A program made the translations under genes and the position numbers. Below, piece after piece: positions 3,817-11,622 of a DNA stretch of 64,000 nt. The stretch's first letter is position 1, and the number at the start of each line of letters is the position of its first letter. Origin of the DNA: Acidovorax sp. DW039 (GTDB lineage Bacteria; Pseudomonadota; Gammaproteobacteria; Burkholderiales; Burkholderiaceae_C); NCBI RefSeq assembly GCF_037101375.1, contig NZ_AP029019.1:4790772-4854771 (forward strand). The letters run 5' to 3'. The notes under the pieces are model-generated. The model made no database searches and was not told where the DNA came from. It saw only the letters and a program-made list of their open reading frames with translations.

Positions 3817-4260
3817 TCACCACCCATACCGCGATATCCAATCTATTGCTAGCGCAACGCACATTCCCACAAGCGCTCCTGCGGCGATTTCAATCTTGTG
3901 GTGTCCTACACGTTCGCGCAGGGGCTTGAGTTGGTGCTCGCGCGCGAGCTTGTTGATGGCTTCGGCATGCTTTCCTACCTGCCTACGCAGGCTCGCGGCG
4001 TCCAGCATGACAACAAATGCCAACGTCAGAGCCACCCCAAAGGCAGGATGGCCAATCCCTTCCCTCAAAGCCACTAAGAAAGCCATCGAGCTGACGATTG
4101 CGCTGTGTGTGCTTGGCATTCCTCCATAGCCAACCAAATCAATCGCCCAACGCTTGGCCTTGATGCTGTTCACCATAAATTTCAGGGAGCCTGCAACAAG
4201 CCAAGCCATCAATGGCGTTGCAGGATAACCAAAGTCCCAGTTAGTCATGGTTACGCTCAT
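3817..4260 (-). CDS. Divergent PAP2-family phosphatase, candidate lipid-linked ribose-phosphate phosphatase
   Basis: This 147-residue membrane protein belongs to the divergent PAP2 (DUF212, YuiD-like) group: it has GGMPSTHSAIVSS, the GxPSxHS phosphatase core, and HKIEIAAGALVG near the C-terminus. I start at the ATG at 4260, which overlaps the stop of the upstream UbiA-type gene by four bases (ATGA), indicating translational coupling. In Mycobacterium the same step next to the UbiA enzyme, removal of the 5-phosphate from polyprenyl-phosphoryl-ribose 5-phosphate, is assigned to a PAP2-type protein (Rv3807c). By position this gene fills that slot; the subfamily differs, so the assignment is inference. 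Confidence 0.8.
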   Translation of the reverse strand: MSVTMTNWDFGYPATPLMAWLVAGSLKFMVNSIKAKRWAIDLVGYGGMPSTHSAIVSSMAFLVALREGIGHPAFGVALTLAFVVMLDAASLRRQVGKHAEAINKLAREHQLKPLRERVGHHKIEIAAGALVGMCVALAIDWISRYGW

Positions 4261-5141
4261 GATGCTGCAGGCCACAAAACCCAAACGCACAGAGAGACCC
4301 AAGTAACCACCGTGACAAGCAAAGGAACATCTCCTAAAAGTACATCCGTTGGGGACTCGCCACCTTGCATTTTTTCCACTACGAACCAGTAGCGAAACAG
4401 ACCAAACAACACAACAGGGACAGTAATGACCAAATCCGGTTGCGCAGACATGACGAACATGCTGTAGAAAACCAACGCTCCCGTGGCAGCCATCTCTGCA
4501 TACCTGTCTATCAACTCCACCGTGTACCGTTGCAACACTTCACGGCTTTCGCTACCTCGTTGACTTAATTCTTGCCGGCGCTTGATTGCAGCCAAGTACA
4601 GGGCAAGACACAGGGTGGTTATGAACATCCACGACGAAACTGGCACCGCGAGTGCTTGCGCACCAGCATAAACACGCAGAACAAAACCGAAGGCAACCGT
4701 AAAAATATCGACCACTGGCTGGTGTTTCAAACCAAAGCTGTACGCTAAGTTCATTGCCAAGTACACGCAAATAACAGCGACTACTGAGGGGTGGAAGAAC
4801 CAGCTCCAAATCAGCACACCGTAAAGCAACGCTAACAACACCAGAGCTTGCGGCACAGACACGGCACCCGTGGCTAACGGACGCGTTCTAGATTTGGATG
4901 GATGGCTCCTGTCCCTATCAATGTCCTTGAGATCGTTGACGATATAAGCGGCAGAAGAGGCGATACAAAAAAGGATAGCAGCCACCAAGGCCTGCACCAC
5001 AGCATGCATGTCCTTGAATTGACCGGCAAATACCAAAGGTGCAATGACGAAACTGTTCTTGATCCATTGCCGGGGTCTCATGAGCCTCAGGAAGCCACCC
5101 AACTTGAAGAGAGCTGAGGAAGGCCAGGGGGTATCATCCAT
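4257..5141 (-). CDS. UbiA-type polyprenyl-phosphate phosphoribosyltransferase (DPPR synthase-like)
   Basis: The product is a 294-residue integral membrane protein of the UbiA prenyltransferase superfamily with about nine helices. The first Asp-rich motif NDLKDIDRD is at 69-77; a second region reads YSFGLKHQPVVDIFTVAFG. The opening LRLMRPRQWIKN is typical of the decaprenyl-phosphate phosphoribosyltransferase branch (Rv3806c), which joins PRPP to polyprenyl phosphate, the first committed step to lipid-linked arabinofuranose. Neighbouring PAP2-, GtrA-, DprE1- and DprE2-like genes support this over a ubiquinone or heme role. It is divergent from gtrA, with only 40 bases between start codons. Confidence 0.88.
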   Translation of the reverse strand: MDDTPWPSSALFKLGGFLRLMRPRQWIKNSFVIAPLVFAGQFKDMHAVVQALVAAILFCIASSAAYIVNDLKDIDRDRSHPSKSRTRPLATGAVSVPQALVLLALLYGVLIWSWFFHPSVVAVICVYLAMNLAYSFGLKHQPVVDIFTVAFGFVLRVYAGAQALAVPVSSWMFITTLCLALYLAAIKRRQELSQRGSESREVLQRYTVELIDRYAEMAATGALVFYSMFVMSAQPDLVITVPVVLFGLFRYWFVVEKMQGGESPTDVLLGDVPLLVTVVTWVSLCVWVLWPAAS

Positions 5142-5181
5142 ACCGTTTATTTAAAGACTATTGAAGTGTGAATTCTGCATC

Positions 5182-5583
5182 ATGAAGCTAGCTTTCATCT
5201 ACGCTTTGCTCGCGGCAGTAGCAACTATTGTCAATATCACCACACAGCATGTTTTTTTGGAGATTTACACTGATAAGTATGCAATTCAGGGTTCTGTGCT
5301 GTGCGGCACAATGGCTGGCTTGGTTGTTAAATACCTACTAGATAAAAATTATATTTTTAATTTCAAGACAAAATGTACTGCACACAACACCAAGACATTC
5401 GTGCTTTATTCCATGATGGGGGTGCTTACCACAGCCATTTTTTGGATGTTTGAATTTATTTTTCACAAAATTTCTGATGGATCTGCTGTATTCAGATATT
5501 TGGGAGGCACCTTGGGGCTCATAATCGGATACATTGCAAAATATCAACTAGATAAAAAATTTGTCTTCAAGGCCCGTCAATGA
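5182..5583 (+). CDS. GtrA-like membrane protein
   Basis: This 133-residue protein has four hydrophobic helices and the GtrA-type ends of each half (LDKNYIFNFK and LDKKFVFKARQ). GtrA proteins are proposed to help lipid-linked sugars cross, or be presented at, the inner membrane. In mycobacteria a GtrA protein (Rv3789) sits directly beside dprE1, exactly as here. I start at the ATG at 5182; a TTG at 5161 in the same frame is possible. Its TGA overlaps the next ATG by four bases, so it is coupled to the DprE1-like gene. AT-rich composition. Confidence 0.85.
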   Translation: MKLAFIYALLAAVATIVNITTQHVFLEIYTDKYAIQGSVLCGTMAGLVVKYLLDKNYIFNFKTKCTAHNTKTFVLYSMMGVLTTAIFWMFEFIFHKISDGSAVFRYLGGTLGLIIGYIAKYQLDKKFVFKARQ

Positions 5584-6878
5584 AGCTAGTTCAATCTTGG
5601 GGAAGACTGGATTCAAAGCTACATCAAGTAGTTTTATTAACCTCACCTCAACAATCAAAGATAGAAATTAAAGAAAAATTCCCGGGTCTAGCATTCGGTA
5701 ACGGTCGAAGCTATGGTGATATTTGTCTTAATCCAAACGGCTTTCTCTGGAATACTCAAGGGCTCAGTAACTTCTGCTCCTGGAATCCAGAGACAGGTCG
5801 CTTGACGACTGAGGCTGGCGTACTTTTAAAGGACGTTCAACAAACATTTTTATCGCGGGGGTGGATGCTCCCTGTTACTCCAGGAACTCAACTCGTCACT
5901 GTAGGTGGGGCAATTGCAAATGATGTTCATGGAAAGAATCATCATGCCTTTGGAACCTTTGGCGATCACATCATTCGCTTATGGCTACTCCGTACGAACG
6001 GGCAAGAGATTGAATGCAGCAGAAGTGTTAATTCCGAATGGTTTGAGGCGACCATAGGAGGAATGGGCCTTACAGGAGTCATCCTAAAAGCAGAGATTCA
6101 ACTCAAACAAGTCAGCGGCCCATGGCTGGAATCTGAAACCATTCCATTTCAAGGACTGGAAGATTTTTTCTCATTATCAGACTCAAGTGAGTCCAAATGG
6201 GAACACACTGTTTCTTGGATCGACTGCTTGGCTGGCATAAATACACGAGGCATTTTCATGCGAGCCAATCCCTCAAAACATATTGAAAGAGAAAAAACAG
6301 CATCAAAACCAAAAAAAATATTCTTCACTCCACCCATTTCCCCCGTAAATAAGTTCACTCTAAGTTTTTTTAACACTGCATATTATTGGATACAACGAGG
6401 CAGATCAGGAAAATCCATCGTCAACTACAAAGATTTCTTTTATCCTCTTGACGGAGTTTTAGAGTGGAACCGCTTGTATGGACCTAATGGATTTTATCAA
6501 TATCAAAGTGTGATACCTAGAGAGACAGGTCTTGATGCAACACGAGAAATGTTAAAAGAAATATCACGTGCCAGAGAGGGTTCTTTTCTTGCAGTACTTA
6601 AGACCTTTGGTAAACGCCCCTCATCTGGACTCTTGAGTTTTGCTCGGCCAGGAGTAACACTAGCGCTCGACTTTCCAAACCGAAACGTTAAAACTCTGGC
6701 GCTCTTTAAGCGATTGGACAGTATCGTAGAAGAAGCCGGAGGTGCGCTATATCTCGCAAAAGACAATCGCATGAGTAGCAAAATGTTCGTCAAAACTTAT
6801 CCTAGTCTTGAGAAATTTTTGCCCTTTAGAGATCCTGGAATTACATCTTCTATGTCACGTCGACTTTTCGGCAGCTAG
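5580..6878 (+). CDS. dprE1: DprE1-like FAD-dependent decaprenylphosphoryl-ribose 2-oxidase
   Basis: DprE1 oxidises polyprenylphosphoryl-ribose at C2 so that DprE2 can reduce it to the arabinose epimer. The 432-residue product has the FAD_binding_4 motif FGNGRSYGD at 39-47, GTQLVTVGGAIANDVHGKNHH near 101-121 and a C-terminal substrate domain. The Lys known to be essential in the Mycobacterium tuberculosis enzyme (K418) has an equivalent at K394 in YLAKDNR. The benzothiazinone-target Cys (C387) aligns with Ala362 in GVTLALDFP. Start ATG overlaps the gtrA stop. Clearly more AT-rich than flanking chromosomal genes, suggesting transfer. Other VAO-type oxidases are possible, but the context is decisive. 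Confidence 0.88.
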   Translation: MKLVQSWGRLDSKLHQVVLLTSPQQSKIEIKEKFPGLAFGNGRSYGDICLNPNGFLWNTQGLSNFCSWNPETGRLTTEAGVLLKDVQQTFLSRGWMLPVTPGTQLVTVGGAIANDVHGKNHHAFGTFGDHIIRLWLLRTNGQEIECSRSVNSEWFEATIGGMGLTGVILKAEIQLKQVSGPWLESETIPFQGLEDFFSLSDSSESKWEHTVSWIDCLAGINTRGIFMRANPSKHIEREKTASKPKKIFFTPPISPVNKFTLSFFNTAYYWIQRGRSGKSIVNYKDFFYPLDGVLEWNRLYGPNGFYQYQSVIPRETGLDATREMLKEISRAREGSFLAVLKTFGKRPSSGLLSFARPGVTLALDFPNRNVKTLALFKRLDSIVEEAGGALYLAKDNRMSSKMFVKTYPSLEKFLPFRDPGITSSMSRRLFGS

Positions 6879-6887
6879 TTTTTATTT

Positions 6888-7658
6888 ATGCTTGATACCC
6901 AACCGCTCTTTCGACGCATCATCATTGTCGGAGCCACATCCGCAATTGCAAACCAGTGCGCAAAAATATGGCTAACAGCTCAATCAGCAGAGCTTATTCT
7001 CATAGGTCGTGATGAGTTAAAGCTGAAACAGATAACATCAGATTTAAAAATTCGTTCGCCTCAATCTTCTATATCTAGCATTTTTGTAAACTTCCTAGAC
7101 GAAAAATCCATTCAAGAAACTACCCAACTAATTTGCGAAGAACGGCTACCAGACATCGTGCTCATTGCTCAAGGTGCGCTACCTAATCAAGAAGAATGCC
7201 AACACAATCTGAACGTCTGTCGTGCAGCACTCGAAATCAATGGAATTTCACCCATTCTATTTACTGAGGGTTTTGCAAAATTTATGGCGAAAGCAGATTT
7301 TGGTCGAATTATTGTCATCGGCTCAGTAGCTGGTGATCGCGGTCGTCAGTCTAACTACGTTTATGGGGCAGCAAAAGCCATGGTACATAGATACATAGAA
7401 GGACTTCAACATCGTATTGCAGGGCATTGTCATAATTTAAGCATTCTTTTAGTGAAACCCGGCCCAACCGCGACGCCCATGACCAGACATCTTCAGGCCG
7501 CAGGAGCTTCGCTAGCTAGCGCAGAAACGGTAGCACTAGAAATTGTTGAAGCATCAAATAAACACAAGACACAATTATATACCCCAAAAAAATGGGGGAT
7601 AATTATGTTTCTAATACGCCACCTCCCTTCTTTTATTTTTAACAAAATTCGCATATAA
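6888..7658 (+). CDS. dprE2: DprE2-like short-chain dehydrogenase (decaprenylphosphoryl-2-keto-pentose reductase)
   Basis: The 256-residue SDR has the cofactor loop GATSAIA at 15-21, a Ser in IGSVAGDRG near 145 and the catalytic Tyr159-Lys163 pair in YVYGAAK. GATSAIA with a 250-residue length is characteristic of DprE2, which reduces the 2-keto lipid intermediate to polyprenylphosphoryl-D-arabinose. It lies nine bases after dprE1 and closes the gtrA-dprE1-dprE2 operon. It converges on the pilin accessory gene, with 45 bases between the stops. Composition is AT-rich like dprE1. Confidence 0.87.
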   Translation: MLDTQPLFRRIIIVGATSAIANQCAKIWLTAQSAELILIGRDELKLKQITSDLKIRSPQSSISSIFVNFLDEKSIQETTQLICEERLPDIVLIAQGALPNQEECQHNLNVCRAALEINGISPILFTEGFAKFMAKADFGRIIVIGSVAGDRGRQSNYVYGAAKAMVHRYIEGLQHRIAGHCHNLSILLVKPGPTATPMTRHLQAAGASLASAETVALEIVEASNKHKTQLYTPKKWGIIMFLIRHLPSFIFNKIRI

Positions 7659-7703
7659 ATCATCAAATTACATAATCACAAAAAGAGCCGCTAGAAAAAT
7701 CAC

Positions 7704-8483
7704 TCATTGGCTCAAAAATCCATCCCCTGGAAGAAATCCAAGAATTCTGGCAGAACTATCCATTATTGCGATCCAATCTTGCCTATGAATGACGGGTAAA
7801 AACAATAACTCACTCACAGCCAAATTGCTTTGGTGCGCCATCTTTTTAATACTGACTTCCAAGTGAGGATACACGGCTAGGAGCGTCATTACACTCTTAG
7901 CACGTTCAAGAACCTTTTTTCTATAAACATCATCGTAGGGGATATAGAATTCAATACGTTGAGCATAATCAGCTCGCCCCATTAATGATTCAAAAAGCAC
8001 CTTTCCTCGCTCTTCTGGATTTAATGGAGAACGAATTCCAACTACAGAAGGTCCCCTCCAGAATACCGGCCGAAGTGATAAGGGCAACTTCCGAAAATCT
8101 CTTTCATCTTCCGAGGAAGATAGCTCACTCAGTGTAATTACTCGAAATCGATCAATCTCATGCACCAAAAATAATGGACGCGCCTGATAAGAAGTCCAAA
8201 ACCCCAAAAAAAGTGCAGACAATTGAATTACGGCTATCAACCCCATATCTACACGCAGGGCAACGCGCCTTTTATTTGGATTTGCAAGCAATAAAGTCAA
8301 GAGGGGCCCACAAATAATATCAATGAGTAACATTAATATAAATATACCCCTCCCCCCAGAAAGTAAGTCATAGGGTGCTGGATACCATATCACCAAGACA
8401 ATTAGTGCCGCACAACTAGCAAGAAAACAAGATATCAAAAAATGAATAGCCGCATAACGTGCAGCAAACTTAAAACGACTCAT
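7704..8483 (-). CDS. tfpZ: TfpX/TfpZ-family type IV pilin accessory protein
   Basis: The 259-residue protein begins with a short basic stretch (MSRFKFAARY), then about four membrane helices in the first 115 residues, followed by a soluble, presumably periplasmic, domain. The motif WYPAPYDLLSGGRGIFILML and the following DIICGPLLTLLL are hallmarks of the TfpX/TfpZ family, found immediately downstream of particular pilin alleles in Pseudomonas and needed for assembly of the cognate pilin. I chose the ATG at 8483, seven bases after the pilin stop, over a longer frame that would run back into the pilin gene. It is the last gene of the pilin operon. Confidence 0.85.
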   Translation of the reverse strand: MSRFKFAARYAAIHFLISCFLASCAALIVLVIWYPAPYDLLSGGRGIFILMLLIDIICGPLLTLLLANPNKRRVALRVDMGLIAVIQLSALFLGFWTSYQARPLFLVHEIDRFRVITLSELSSSEDERDFRKLPLSLRPVFWRGPSVVGIRSPLNPEERGKVLFESLMGRADYAQRIEFYIPYDDVYRKKVLERAKSVMTLLAVYPHLEVSIKKMAHQSNLAVSELLFLPVIHRQDWIAIMDSSARILGFLPGDGFLSQ

Positions 8484-8490
8484 AAAAAAA

Positions 8491-9051
8491 TTAGCGACAC
8501 TCAGAGGGTGCAATACTAGCTGGCAATGTGGCAGTCGCAACAGGAGCTGTAAATCCATATTGTTGAGCACGCGTACCTGCGCCCGCTCCAGCAGAAGATA
8601 AACAAAGCCAGTCTAGCGTAGCCTCCGCACTGGGACCTAGGAAATACGCAGGTAGAGAAATAGCTTTCGTCGCTCCGGTACGCATTTGGGGGCTTAACAA
8701 TAAAGTTTTTGACGATGCTCCACCACCGACATTCGATGTGAAAGTCACAGTCAATTCTCCAGTGATGGAATCCATCAGCGTGGATTGCACGTATTTGCTT
8801 TGATTACCTGTAGCGTTCATACGGGCATTCCACAACTCAGCTGTTGCCGCAAGGGCGGCCGCATTAGATATGCCATTAGCAGCGATTTCCTGCTTTGCCT
8901 CTGCAGTTAACAGCAATCCCTCTACAACGCGAGATCGCACAATATAAGATTGGTAGGCAGGAACTGCAATTGCTGCAAGCAACCCTATTATTGCAACCAC
9001 AACCATCAGTTCAATCAGGGTGAAACCTTTATTGGCTGCATTGCACTTCAT
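8491..9051 (-). CDS. Type IV pilin, second pilin of the locus
   Basis: This 186-residue prepilin has a nine-residue basic leader ending in Gly9. Mature Phe10 follows, then the invariant Glu at mature position 5 ([16 protein letters not shown]), so it is a PilD substrate. The C-terminal region has a Cys pair (DWLC and PSEC) that would close a long D-loop of about 34 residues, rich in Ala, Gly and Thr. AGAGGTGG lies directly upstream of the ATG at 9051, inside the end of the glycosyltransferase gene. It shares the N-terminus and overall plan with the pilin at 10999-11535 but differs in the exposed half. Major pilin, minor pilin or alternative subunit cannot be told apart here. Confidence 0.9.
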
Positions 9052-9061
9052 GACCACCTCT

Positions 9062-10933
9062 TTAAGGATAAAAGTGATTGATAGAATTTCGCGCTTTTTC
9101 TTGACAAAAAATATCATCTTCCTTGTGATGCCTTAAACAGTGCCTATAAACCACGTCAAAATAAGAGTGCATTAAATTTTTACCTCCAACGTTGGAAAAA
9201 TTTTTTATTTCCAAATAAAGCTTGCGCGCATTTTCAAGATCATCTAATGCATAAAAATATGCAAGTCGATGCCACAGCGCCTCATAGTTTGGAGAACTAT
9301 CCGCAGATTTCCAGGCATCAGCGGTCAAGCTAGCTTCTAAGGCAGACTTCACATCTCCATCGATAGTTGCCAAAGCAAGCGCCTTATCTATATATAAAAA
9401 ATAGAGCATGCCCGATGCAGCATTGATAGAACCCAGAACATTGTTCTTCTTCTCATTCAACTTTTTCTTTACCAAATCAATGGCAGTCTCAATGCTCTTA
9501 GCTGCCAAAGGGCTGCGTTGCTCCAAAAGATAAGTTGAATAGAACACCATTTGAGCAGGTGTTATATTATCTTTGTCTTCCAAAATTTTTTCGTATTCGC
9601 GTTCAAACTCTTCAAATCTTTTATCTTCCAGAAGAGCCAGAAAATACGCAGTGGAAACATAATCAATAGCGGGGGTTTTTTGGTACATCCACGCCCAAAG
9701 TGTGTAATTTGTTCTCCATATGGGAATCACGCTGCTTGTTGTAAATATCGAGCCTATTACAAAACTTCCGCCAAGAATAGTCAGAGCCACCTTTAAGAGA
9801 ATTTTTCCTGCAAGCAACCTCACCACAACACTAAAGGCGCAAACGATAAATATCAAAAAAAATAACAAAGGCGCAGCCAAAAATCGCTCATGACCAATGT
9901 TGCCACCTATAGTCATAGGAATAATATTAAGAACTGGAGATAAACTTATCATCCCCAGCAAGCCAACCCATGCCCATGACCTATTCTTGAGCGCTCCCAG
10001 AGCTAATACAATCAGATAAAAGCCTACAAAAAAATATGTGAAGTAGTTTTGATAGCCCTTTTCCAATTCGAGAGTTGCGTTGTGCTGGGGATTGATATCA
10101 AAAAAAGGAATCAACATTTGATGCAAATAAAAAGCCAAAGTATAAACAGGATAAAATAATCCATAACCCTGACTGGCTTCAGATGCCTCTTTGAAATGAT
10201 AGACCCCCCCCACCGAAGCGTATCGCAAAGAGAAGTAAAAAATAATTACACAGGCATAAAAACATATTAGCCTCTTATTATTTTTCGCAAAATTAATAAC
10301 AGCTTCCCAAAGACCAAAACCGGGATTGGAAATTAGATACAATATGACTATTAACAAAGGAACCGTGATAGCCATCTCTTTGCTAAGCAAACCCAAAAGC
10401 AAACTGAGCGCTAGGAAGAAGTCTCGCTTTATTGAAGCGTCCATCTTCAAATAGAGGTACAAAGACAGAAACATGAAGGTCGTAACCATCAAGTCAAAAC
10501 GGCCGGCCAACCATGCATTAGACTCAACGAGCACTGGATGAAAGGCATATAAAAGCACCACCATCCAATCAAGATTCACAATCCCTAGGCGCTTAAATAT
10601 CTCACCAGACAAAAAATAAGCCAAACATACATTTAATAAAAATATTATTAAATTGTTTAGATGGGCACTACCCGGATTAAGCCCAAAAAACTTAACCTCA
10701 TAAAAATAGGTTAAAAAAACCAAAGGTCGAAAGTAGGTAGTCTTTTCTAAAACGGGACGTGAAATCGCCCCCCACGTCAAATCTCCAGACTGCATCCTAG
10801 CGTCATTCAATATCAATAGCTTATCGTCCCAAACATACTGAAAACTTAGCGTCGGATAATAAATATACGAGACTGTCAAGACTACAAAAAAAAGTAGAAA
10901 GAAATGGCGTAGACGATAATCTTTGATAAACAT
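9062..10933 (-). CDS. GT-C superfamily membrane glycosyltransferase, candidate pilin arabinosyltransferase (TfpW-like)
   Basis: The product has 623 residues and about 11-12 hydrophobic helices up to residue 410, then a soluble tail of some 200 residues with helical TPR-like spacing. A GT-C style acidic pair D36-D37 sits in the first external loop (YVWDDKLL). Later motifs [26 protein letters not shown] and [12 protein letters not shown] match the PMT/TMTC-like GT-C pattern that uses polyprenyl-phosphate sugars. It lies between two pilin genes and beside a polyprenyl-phosphate-arabinose pathway, as TfpW does in arabinosylated group IV Pseudomonas pili. No Wzy_C (PilO/TfpO ligase) motif was seen. 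The start at 10933 lacks a good ribosome site. AT-rich. Confidence 0.75.
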
Positions 10934-10944
10934 AGCCAGTATTT

Positions 10945-10974
10945 AAAAAAAAAGGGGGCTAATGCCCCCTTTTT
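10945..10974 (-). terminator. Rho-independent terminator after the first pilin
   Basis: The stem GGGGGC/GCCCCC (10954-10959 and 10964-10969) has a TAAT loop and a nine-T run on the minus strand. It follows the pilin stop at 10999 and precedes the glycosyltransferase start at 10933. This would yield mostly monocistronic pilin mRNA with limited read-through. Confidence 0.85.
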
Positions 10975-10998
10975 GATCAACGAGTCATACAGTAATAA

Positions 10999-11535
10999 TT
11001 AGCGGCACTCGGCTGGAGCAAACTTGGCGGGCAGCGTGCCCGCTGTTGTACCAGTCATAGTGCGTTGAGTAGCTGCAGTTTGCGTCACAGAAGCGCATGC
11101 CCAGTCCACTGCACCAGAGTTACCAGCGGTGATCGCAGCGTCCAGTGTTTGGAACGTAGTTCCATTGGTCTTGATGAATGGCCTCAGGTTCAAGGTGGCG
11201 TTCGCAGGAATAGCACCAACTGTGGCGTTGTTGTAGGTGATGGTGATTTGTCCGGTAGTCGAACTGATTTGTACTGAATTAACGTACTTGGACGTGGCAC
11301 CTGTATTGCTTTGTTGAGCATTCCATGTGTTAGCCGCAACCACCAGATCGTTGGCAGTAGCAACTTCGTTAACCATGGACTTGGCTCCAGCAGCCAATGT
11401 CAAACCTTCGGTCACGCGCGTGCGAACGGTGTAATCTTGATAGGCAGGCAGAGCCACAGCCGCCAGAATACCAATGATGGCCACCACGATCATCAGTTCG
11501 ATCAGGGTAAAACCTTTTTGCAGAGAACGCTTCAT
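10999..11535 (-). CDS. pilA: Type IV pilin, probable major subunit (PilA/PilE)
   Basis: The 178-residue prepilin has leader MKRSLQKG and a processed N-terminus [20 protein letters not shown] with Glu5. An alpha-beta loop with TGATSKY follows, then a Cys-bounded D-region (DWACASV to APAEC) very rich in Thr, a plausible O-glycosylation target. A strong GGAG ribosome site precedes the ATG, a sigma-54-type promoter lies 75-85 bases upstream and a strong terminator follows immediately: the expression architecture of a major pilin. It heads the run pilin, GT-C enzyme, pilin, TfpZ-like protein. Confidence 0.93.
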
Positions 11536-11606
11536 AACTCACTCCTCAGGGTAAAAAAACTTGCAAATGAAAACCTGTCGATAAGTCTTCAGGCTGTGAT
11601 AGTAAG

Positions 11607-11622
11607 AGCAGGGATCGTGCCA
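11607..11622 (-). promoter_or_regulatory. Sigma-54 (-24/-12) promoter of the pilin operon
   Basis: Read on the minus strand the site is TGGCACGATCCCTGCT. It matches the consensus TGGCACG-N4-TTGCW at the whole -24 element and at the -12 GC with exact spacing. It lies about 72 bases upstream of the pilin ATG. Type IV pilin genes are commonly RpoN/PilSR-dependent. Confidence 0.75.

What the first reader, a model, noticed from the sequence alone, without database searches (positions are those of the whole stretch)
3817..11622. Complete pilin arabinosylation locus: lipid-linked arabinose pathway joined to a type IV pilin operon
Seen: adjacent genes for a PAP2-like phosphatase, a UbiA-type phosphoribosyltransferase, GtrA, DprE1-like and DprE2-like enzymes. 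They directly abut an operon of pilin, GT-C glycosyltransferase, pilin and TfpX/TfpZ-family protein. Known: in mycobacteria these five activities make and handle decaprenyl-phosphate-arabinose. In P. aeruginosa group IV strains, homologues supply D-arabinofuranose for pilin glycosylation by the GT-C enzyme TfpW, with TfpZ as accessory. Inference: this beta-proteobacterium decorates its pili with arabinofuranose, and all parts are in 8 kb. It could shield pili from phage or alter adhesion.
Basis: partly seen in the sequence, partly recalled or inferred. Interest (0 to 1): 0.92.

Follow-up and report, generated by a model that had tools for sequence, protein, structure and literature searches.

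The report
Acidovorax pilin arabinosylation gene cassette
An Acidovorax bacterium appears to carry, side by side, the genes for its hair-like pili and the genes that make and attach an unusual sugar (D-arabinose, best known from tuberculosis bacteria) to them; it is a new example of a known pilus-coating system, and related genomes suggest that it is passed around as a swappable cassette.

Summary
At 3817-11535 nine genes lie together: DUF212, UbiA/DPPRS, GtrA, DprE1-like and DprE2-like, then a convergent operon pilin-[terminator]-GT-C-pilin-TfpX/Z. The island is GC-poor, lies in an Acidovorax genome, and holds its only two PF00114 pilins. The key link is Pseudomonas paraeruginosa PA7, whose pili belong to the published D-arabinofuranose system. 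PA7's TfpW is in the same GT-C family (profile E 2e-196; 26 of 27 invariant residues), and its D-Araf island has the same genes and layout, 1.15 Mb from its pilin. In a sample of 348 genomes of the Pseudomonas indica family, the 8 with this GT-C all fall among the 44 with DprE1. Pilin arabinosylation is the best reading; the sugar itself is unproven. Linkage is not unique: 14 of 66 GT-C loci carry DprE1 within about 10 kb, from Acinetobacter to Kangiella, with repeated gain or loss. In 19 other Acidovorax genomes the same slot holds other pilin cassettes, 8 with PglL-type ligases. Verdict: new member of a known kind; the modular cassette biology is the interesting part.

The parts
3817..4260 (-). 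DUF212 / divergent PAP2 protein, candidate 5'-phosphoribosyl phosphatase; start overlaps the UbiA stop
   Evidence: PF02681 E 2.9e-35; 65% id to the DUF212 of PA7's D-Araf island; GGxPSxHSA and LRxRxGH motifs kept in the 8 aligned; not found together with the HAD phosphatase in any of 69 UbiA modules
4257..5141 (-). UbiA-family polyprenyl-phosphate phosphoribosyltransferase (Rv3806c/DPPRS type)
   Evidence: NF008978 214.3 bits, cut-off 207; PDB 8j8j DPPRS E 1.3e-38, NDxxDxxxD motif aligned; 65% id to PA7
5182..5583 (+). GtrA-family protein, candidate flippase for the lipid-linked pentose
   Evidence: NF037976 158.4 bits, cut-off 50; 55% id to PA7; GtrA in 20 of 20 DUF212-type modules
5580..6878 (+). 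DprE1-like FAD oxidase
   Evidence: NF053785 305.8 bits, below cut-off 500; M. tuberculosis DprE1 structures E about 1e-60; next best in the genome scores 66 bits
6888..7658 (+). DprE2-like SDR reductase
   Evidence: only PDB hit at E<=1e-12 is mycobacterial DprE2, E 8e-22; NF053786 124 bits, below cut-off 250
7704..8483 (-). TfpX/TfpZ-family pilin accessory membrane protein
   Evidence: NF041437 179.5 bits, below cut-off 200
8491..9051 (-). second type IV pilin
   Evidence: PF00114 and N_methyl; 46% id to pilin 1
9062..10933 (-). TfpW-family GT-C transferase, candidate pilin arabinosyltransferase
   Evidence: PA7 TfpW matches the family profile at E 2.2e-196; 31% id by BLAST, 28% in the profile alignment; 26 of 27 invariant residues kept, incl. 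the acidic pair D36-D37
10949..10974 (-). Rho-independent terminator between pilin 1 and the GT-C
   Evidence: 11-bp stem + T tract, though the scan as a whole found no more sites than shuffles, 10 against 9.0; MFE -20.1, z -3.2, 0 of 200 shuffles as stable; such a terminator is described as a common feature of pilin-accessory cassettes (PMC11841053, passages)
10999..11535 (-). first type IV pilin (PilA-type), leads the operon
   Evidence: PF00114 50.6 bits; with pilin 2 the only PF00114 matches at E<=0.01 in the genome

Best explanation
A complete pilin-arabinosylation cassette. Inferred route: UbiA/DPPRS moves phosphoribose from PRPP to a polyprenyl phosphate; DUF212 removes the 5'-phosphate; DprE1 oxidises and DprE2 reduces C2, giving polyprenyl-phosphate-D-arabinofuranose; GtrA helps flip it to the periplasm; the TfpW-family GT-C puts D-Araf on Ser/Thr of the co-encoded pilin(s); TfpX/Z aids pilus assembly. 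A terminator between pilin 1 and the GT-C would keep pilin in excess. The cassette is the genome's sole PF00114 pilin locus, at a slot that the other Acidovorax genomes examined fill with other pilin cassettes. Shown here: gene families, layout, kinship to PA7's system, co-occurrence, recurrence, slot exchange. Inferred: every biochemical step, the sugar on the pilin, and protection from pilus phages.
For: G411 is PA7: its contig is 6,588,339 bp, the size in the PA7 genome abstract (PMC2809737, start of abstract in listings). PA7 TfpW is a full-length match to the GT-C profile and keeps 26 of 27 residues invariant in A1. PA7's D-Araf island, reported as PSPA7_6245-6251 (PMC12369383, passages), holds DUF212 65%, UbiA 65%, GtrA 55%, DprE1 42% and DprE2 39% identical to the window's. 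PDB kin: DPPRS, DprE1, DprE2. Co-occurrence: in 348 genomes of the family of G004 (P. indica), the 8 with the GT-C are all among the 44 with DprE1, none among the other 304 (Fisher 3.6e-8). 35 of 40 genomes reached through GT-C loci have DprE1, against 28 of 250 in the window's order (a different set of taxa). 29 of 66 GT-C loci have a pilin motif within 2 kb upstream on the same strand. Sole PF00114 pilins; a PilB over its cut-off. Terminator after pilin 1. In five sibling loci an AftB-like protein lies near the GT-C (two tested against NCBIfam; one against the PDB).
Against: DprE1 and DprE2 fall below NCBIfam's cut-offs, though PA7's own do too (385 of 500 and 172 of 250). 36 of the 44 DprE1+ genomes have no GT-C of this family at E<=1e-40, so the pathway also serves other products. 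5 of 40 GT-C genomes lack a DprE1 hit; all five are MAGs by title. The GT-C is only 28-31% identical to TfpW; its transferase part has no Pfam, NCBIfam or PDB match, and no structure could be predicted. In one search at most 3 first-look candidates per genome were scored, so absences there are not exhaustive (the 44 DprE1+ genomes were scored in full, with the same 8). The Fisher tests are not corrected for kinship. No glycan data.
Confidence: 0.85

Rival explanations
1. The D-Araf module supplies another envelope glycan (LPS or capsule side chains), and the pilin operon only happens to lie beside it.
For: 36 of 44 DprE1+ genomes in the 348 lack this GT-C; three-component pentofuranose systems decorate O-antigens (PMC11127046, passages).
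Against: 14 of 66 GT-C loci carry DprE1 in the fetched stretch, and on the DprE1 tree the joined state needs 12 changes, at least 11 forced by starred branches, so the two come together again and again; the 8 GT-C genomes in the 348 all have DprE1.
Confidence: 0.08
2. The GT-C transfers a different pentofuranose or a preassembled oligosaccharide, so the pilin glycan is not simple D-Araf.
For: The GT-C is a distant branch (28-31% id to TfpW); front-end genes differ between DprE1 clade-mates.
Against: DprE1 and DprE2 together make the arabino epimer in mycobacteria (established knowledge; also PMC11127046, passages); invariant residues shared with TfpW.
Confidence: 0.12
3. Silent or decaying low-GC import, not expressed.
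For: GC 38-54% in the seven non-pilin genes against 61% for the window; absent from the same slot in the 19 other Acidovorax genomes examined.
Against: All nine reading frames are open; motifs of UbiA, DprE1, GT-C and DUF212 are kept; it holds the only PF00114 pilins of the genome.
Confidence: 0.04

Closest known systems
Group IV pilin arabinosylation of Pseudomonas paraeruginosa (PA7, Pa5196): pilA-tfpW-tfpX plus the D-Araf genes PSPA7_6245-6251
   Same: Pilin + TfpW-family GT-C + TfpX/Z-type protein; DUF212-UbiA / GtrA-DprE1-DprE2 in the same divergent layout
   Different: In PA7 the halves lie 1.15 Mb apart; here they touch. Two pilins here; GT-C only 31% identical; the slot is MBL-moaC, whereas PA7's pilin lies beside genes that look like pilB-pilC-pilD (named by eye)
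Homologous systems reported in Pseudomonas syringae B728a and 1448A
   Same: Reported as homologous D-Araf systems (PMC12369383, passages) and, for B728a, predicted to put Araf on pilin (PMC11127046, passages)
   Different: Not compared here; the B728a PPPRS is said to carry a PRP (HAD) domain, which the window's UbiA lacks
Mycobacterial decaprenyl-phosphoryl-arabinose pathway (Rv3806c, Rv3807c, DprE1, DprE2)
   Same: DPPRS, DprE1 and DprE2 homologues
   Different: Phosphatase candidate is DUF212, flippase candidate is GtrA; inferred target is a pilin
Three-component pentofuranose systems of Citrobacter (PMC11127046)
   Same: PRPP-derived polyprenyl-phosphate pentose used by a periplasmic GT-C
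   Different: No HAD PRP domain here; DprE1/E2-like pair instead of their epimerase; inferred protein target
PglL/TfpO-type pilin glycosylation cassettes
   Same: Found in the same Acidovorax slot in 8 of 19 genomes
   Different: Wzy_C/PglL ligase, not a TfpW-family GT-C

Membership tests
Group IV (TfpW) pilin arabinosylation | Pilin gene directly upstream of a GT-C of the TfpW family | tested here: met
   on the quick GT-C tree TfpW of PA7 and the window GT-C share a 27-row starred set (SH-aLRT 99)
Group IV (TfpW) pilin arabinosylation | Rho-independent terminator between pilin and accessory genes | tested here: met
   feature described in PMC11841053 (passages)
Group IV (TfpW) pilin arabinosylation | D-Araf supply module (UbiA, phosphatase, GtrA, DprE1, DprE2) | tested here: met
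   five proteins align to PA7's island at 39-65% identity
Group IV (TfpW) pilin arabinosylation | TfpX-type accessory protein | tested here: inconclusive
   TfpX/TfpZ superfamily 179.5 bits, cut-off 200; 30% id to PA7 TfpX over 110 aa; X and Z not separated; reported as not required
Group IV (TfpW) pilin arabinosylation | Pilin carries alpha-1,5-D-Araf | not testable with these tools
   needs MS/NMR
NCBIfam DprE1 equivalog NF053785 | score over the curated cut-off 500 | tested here: not met
   305.8 bits; PA7's own 385; none of 348 genomes over the cut-off. Filed as DprE1-like only
NCBIfam DprE2 equivalog NF053786 | score over the curated cut-off 250 | tested here: not met
   124.4 bits; PA7's own 172. 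Filed as DprE2-like only
Decaprenyl-phosphate phosphoribosyltransferase NF008978 | score over the curated cut-off 207 | tested here: met
   214.3 bits; the sister models NF008977 and NF008976 are not met (218.5 of 234; 163.7 of 474)
AftB terminal arabinofuranosyltransferase | AftB-like gene in the cassette | tested here: not met
   no hit in the window or within its first 14 kb; found in sibling loci only

The most novel reading that the evidence does not exclude
D-Araf pilin coating is a modular, horizontally exchanged armour across Gammaproteobacteria in the wide sense. A slower-changing D-Araf supply module (in DUF212+GtrA or HAD+PF03706 versions) is repeatedly docked beside a fast-swapping pilin+TfpW front end at a dedicated pilin-cassette slot. 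Some cassettes add an AftB-like enzyme that would cap the arabinan, giving serotype-like pilus glycans shaped by pilus phages. DUF212 would be the phosphoribosyl phosphatase of one module type.
Probability: 0.45. Interest if true: 0.72.

Novelty: new member of a known kind. Interest (0 to 1): 0.52.

Why it matters
In the papers seen, pilin D-arabinosylation is shown by experiment in P. paraeruginosa strains, where supply and target are unlinked. The linked cassettes in Acidovorax, Hydrogenophaga, Acinetobacter venetianus, Psychrobacter, Microbulbifer, Kangiella and others make the association direct, give small self-contained test systems, and predict roles for DUF212 (phosphatase), GtrA/PF03706 (flippase) and an AftB-like enzyme outside mycobacteria. 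They also show that pilin glycosylation type is swapped at one chromosomal slot within a genus, as one would expect if pilus phages were the pressure.

Tried and rejected
Structure of the GT-C: structure prediction with A1 was tried 26 times; the machine was busy each time, so there is no model and no fold search. The PDB search with the GT-C profile (best 60 of 155 seen) showed TPR-like and other repeat proteins matched by the C-terminal part, no transferase domain. The sigma-70 scan found fewer sites than shuffles (7 against 14.6) and was not used. Paper searches (some lists capped) showed no report of the linked locus outside Pseudomonas; Kus 2008 and Harvey 2011 are not held, so prior mention there cannot be excluded.

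Considered and dropped: 'unique to this genome'. 'The whole cassette was inherited as one block': holding together nine GT-Cs (window, P0002-P0005, L018, L038, L021, L029) is rejected, p-AU 7e-39, with the caveats that it is a quick tree and that the group was named after the tree was seen; two further clade tests in that call did not finish. Whether an integrase or transposase lies nearby was not searched for.
Full report
What is there. Profiles identify DUF212, UbiA/DPPRS, GtrA, DprE1-like, DprE2-like, a TfpX/TfpZ-type protein and two type IV pilins. The 623-aa GT-C gene matches no Pfam, NCBIfam or PDB entry on its own. Three units are apparent: UbiA-DUF212 with an ATGA overlap (-), GtrA-DprE1-DprE2 (+), and pilin1-GTC-pilin2-TfpX/Z (-). 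Between pilin 1 and the GT-C is a strong terminator hairpin (10949-10974), a common feature of pilin-accessory cassettes according to PMC11841053 (passages). GC is 38-54% in the seven non-pilin genes against 61% for the window.

The organism. The window lies in a 5.22-Mb genome. Genomes that the tool places in the same genus have contig lengths (4,966,379; 5,196,935; 249,687) equal to those listed for Acidovorax sp. 69, KKS102 and sif1233, so the genus is taken to be Acidovorax. The only PF00114 matches at E<=0.01 in the genome are the two pilins here. A PilB over the curated cut-off is present elsewhere. DprE1 has one strong match (305 bits); the next scores 66 bits.

The enzymes. UbiA aligns to the DPPRS structure 8j8j with the NDxxDxxxD motif. 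The DprE1-like protein aligns to M. tuberculosis DprE1 with the HGKNHH and AKD segments kept. The DprE2-like protein has DprE2 as its only PDB match at E<=1e-12. Neither Dpr protein reaches NCBIfam's cut-off, but neither do PA7's, so that test does not separate them. DUF212 keeps GGxPSxHSA and LRxRxGH in the 8 sequences aligned.

Link to the known system. G411 has a contig of exactly 6,588,339 bp, the PA7 genome size in the abstract of PMC2809737 (start of abstract in listings). PMC12369383 (passages) reports the D-Araf genes as PSPA7_6245-6251 in RGP80 and the pilin operon as PSPA7_5161-5159, and names homologous systems in P. syringae. In G411 the family profile A1 finds TfpW at 5,306,860-5,308,719 with E 2.2e-196, between a pilin and a 245-aa TfpX. 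TfpW keeps 26 of the 27 residues invariant in A1. The island at 6.46 Mb carries DUF212-UbiA and GtrA-DprE1-DprE2 in the same divergent layout, at 65, 65, 55, 42 and 39% identity.

Co-occurrence. In 348 genomes drawn from the family of G004, the P. indica genome (Pseudomonadaceae by inference), 44 have DprE1 (E<=1e-30) and 8 have the GT-C (E<=1e-40). All 8 are among the 44 (Fisher 3.6e-8; not corrected for kinship). One search scored at most 3 first-look candidates per genome; the 44 were scored in full and gave the same 8. Four of the 8 are linked within about 10 kb (G004, G007, G347, G621); PA7 and G362 are not, and in G013 and G014 the genes lie on different contigs. I gave 43 loci (L007-L049); L026 was not held; the other 42 lie in 40 genomes, of which 35 have DprE1. 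In the window's order 28 of 250 do. The 5 without are MAGs by title. Against the simple story: 36 of the 44 DprE1+ genomes lack the GT-C, so the pathway alone does not predict pilin arabinosylation.

Recurrence. Of 66 loci found with A1 in genome contigs (L051-L072 are weak or partial matches), 29 have a pilin motif within 2 kb upstream on the same strand, 14 have DprE1 in the fetched stretch, and 12 have both. The 14 include Acinetobacter venetianus, Psychrobacter, Pseudomonas indica and duriflava, two Microbulbifer, Kangiella, two Acidovorax, Hydrogenophaga, Pelomonas and Comamonas. On a DprE1 tree of 78 modules, 17 labelled joined (picked through GT-C loci or the 348-genome sample, so no random draw), the label needs 12 changes, at least 11 forced by starred branches; shuffled labels need 15.8 on average, so it is also somewhat clustered. 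The window falls in a starred set of four, all joined (with Acidovorax Root219, Pelomonas and Hydrogenophaga; 100/96).

Mosaic. The GT-Cs of those four genomes are scattered on the quick GT-C tree, and holding them together with their nearest kin (nine rows) is rejected (p-AU 7e-39; set named after the tree was seen). So the pilin/GT-C front end seems to have been exchanged against a more stable supply module. For the slot, searched 23 other genomes of the genus with the MBL gene; 20 matched and I fetched stretches from 19 of them (20 stretches; G652 left out). One stretch (L232) is a second MBL copy without pilin. The other 19 each carry at least one pilin motif next to MBL, 18 with moaC in the stretch. 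By blastp none of them has DprE1, UbiA, DUF212 or GtrA; one 25% DprE2 match (L231) lies outside the slot. Against the GT-C profile there are three weak hits of 16.5-45.6 bits, two of them inside the slot in TPR proteins (L233, L237). Eight carry a PglL/Wzy_C ligase; one carries an unassigned 682-aa protein with a GT2. This parallels the P. aeruginosa pilin groups described in PMC11841053.

Functional displacement. I fetched 79 DprE1 modules (the window, the 14 linked loci, PA7 and three others, 27 from the order and 33 from the 348; five of the 44 genomes were not fetched). Ten have no UbiA within 9 kb and were set aside. Of the 69 left, DUF212 alone occurs in 20, a HAD phosphatase alone in 44, both in 0, neither in 5 (one of these cut by the end of its stretch). 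GtrA occurs with all 20 DUF212 modules. Of 55 modules with GtrA or the PF03706 flippase-like protein, 53 have only one; 14 have neither. This supports DUF212 as the phosphatase and GtrA as the flippase of this module type; the modules are kin to each other, so the counts are not independent.

Mechanism. Shown: gene content, layout, kinship to PA7's system, co-occurrence, slot exchange. Inferred: PRPP to polyprenyl-phosphate-phosphoribose, dephosphorylation, C2 epimerisation, flipping, transfer to pilin Ser/Thr, phage protection. The title of a 2020 preprint calls TfpW both D-Araf glycosyltransferase and oligosaccharyltransferase (seen in a reference list only), so a separate polymerase may not be needed.

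Verdict. It is a member of a known kind. What a specialist may not expect is the linked, repeatedly assembled and slot-exchanged cassette, and the AftB-like protein in sibling loci.

Noticed in passing
L010:11796-13484, L047:11742-13313, L045:12171-13868, L191:5892-7910, L192:6315-8123: A second membrane protein near the TfpW-like GT-C, the five 33-50% identical to each other. The two tested have AftB (NF041481) as their only NCBIfam match, far under its cut-off (39.5 and 52 of 1050); L047's only PDB hit is AftB 9dlf, E 3e-14. Weak kin (99 bits) also in PA7's stretch L189; none in the window.
   Followed up: partly
L008, L013, L023, L191, L192 and many DprE1 modules among L245-L304: A second version of the supply module with a HAD phosphatase (separate or fused to UbiA), often with a PF03706 flippase-like protein, in place of DUF212 and GtrA.
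   Followed up: partly
[not shown]
   Followed up: partly
L233:4500-6788 and the like-sized ORFs in L237 and L241: 762-764-aa proteins beside PglL in the slot; the one tested (L233) has TPR repeats and a weak C-terminal match to protein N-glucosyltransferase (NF049992, 48.7 of 1000 bits).
   Followed up: no
L243:2944-5867: Pilin cassette with a 682-aa protein of no Pfam or NCBIfam family followed by a GT2 glycosyltransferase and further genes; possibly another self-contained pilin glycosylation cassette.
   Followed up: no
L026:7939-11935; L017, L030, L034 (Zoogloeaceae MAG Im510_bin101): Two tandem TfpW-like GT-Cs beside a D-Araf module in L026; three separate GT-C loci in one Zoogloeaceae MAG with no DprE1 hit and no pilin motif in the stretches.
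   Followed up: no
window 5580-6878: The residue aligned to Cys387 of M. tuberculosis DprE1 (found by counting along the alignment; its importance is recalled) is Ala here, while the HGKNHH and AKD segments are kept.
   Followed up: no
P0006 and P0242: A GT-C fragment 68% and a DprE1 71% identical to the window's list the same longest contig length (62,883), which suggests a second close relative with the linked locus.
   Followed up: no
window 8491-9051 and 10999-11535: Two different pilins (46% identical) flank the GT-C; a second pilin close to the GT-C also occurs in L011, L016, L018, L029 and L035. Its role is unknown.
   Followed up: partly
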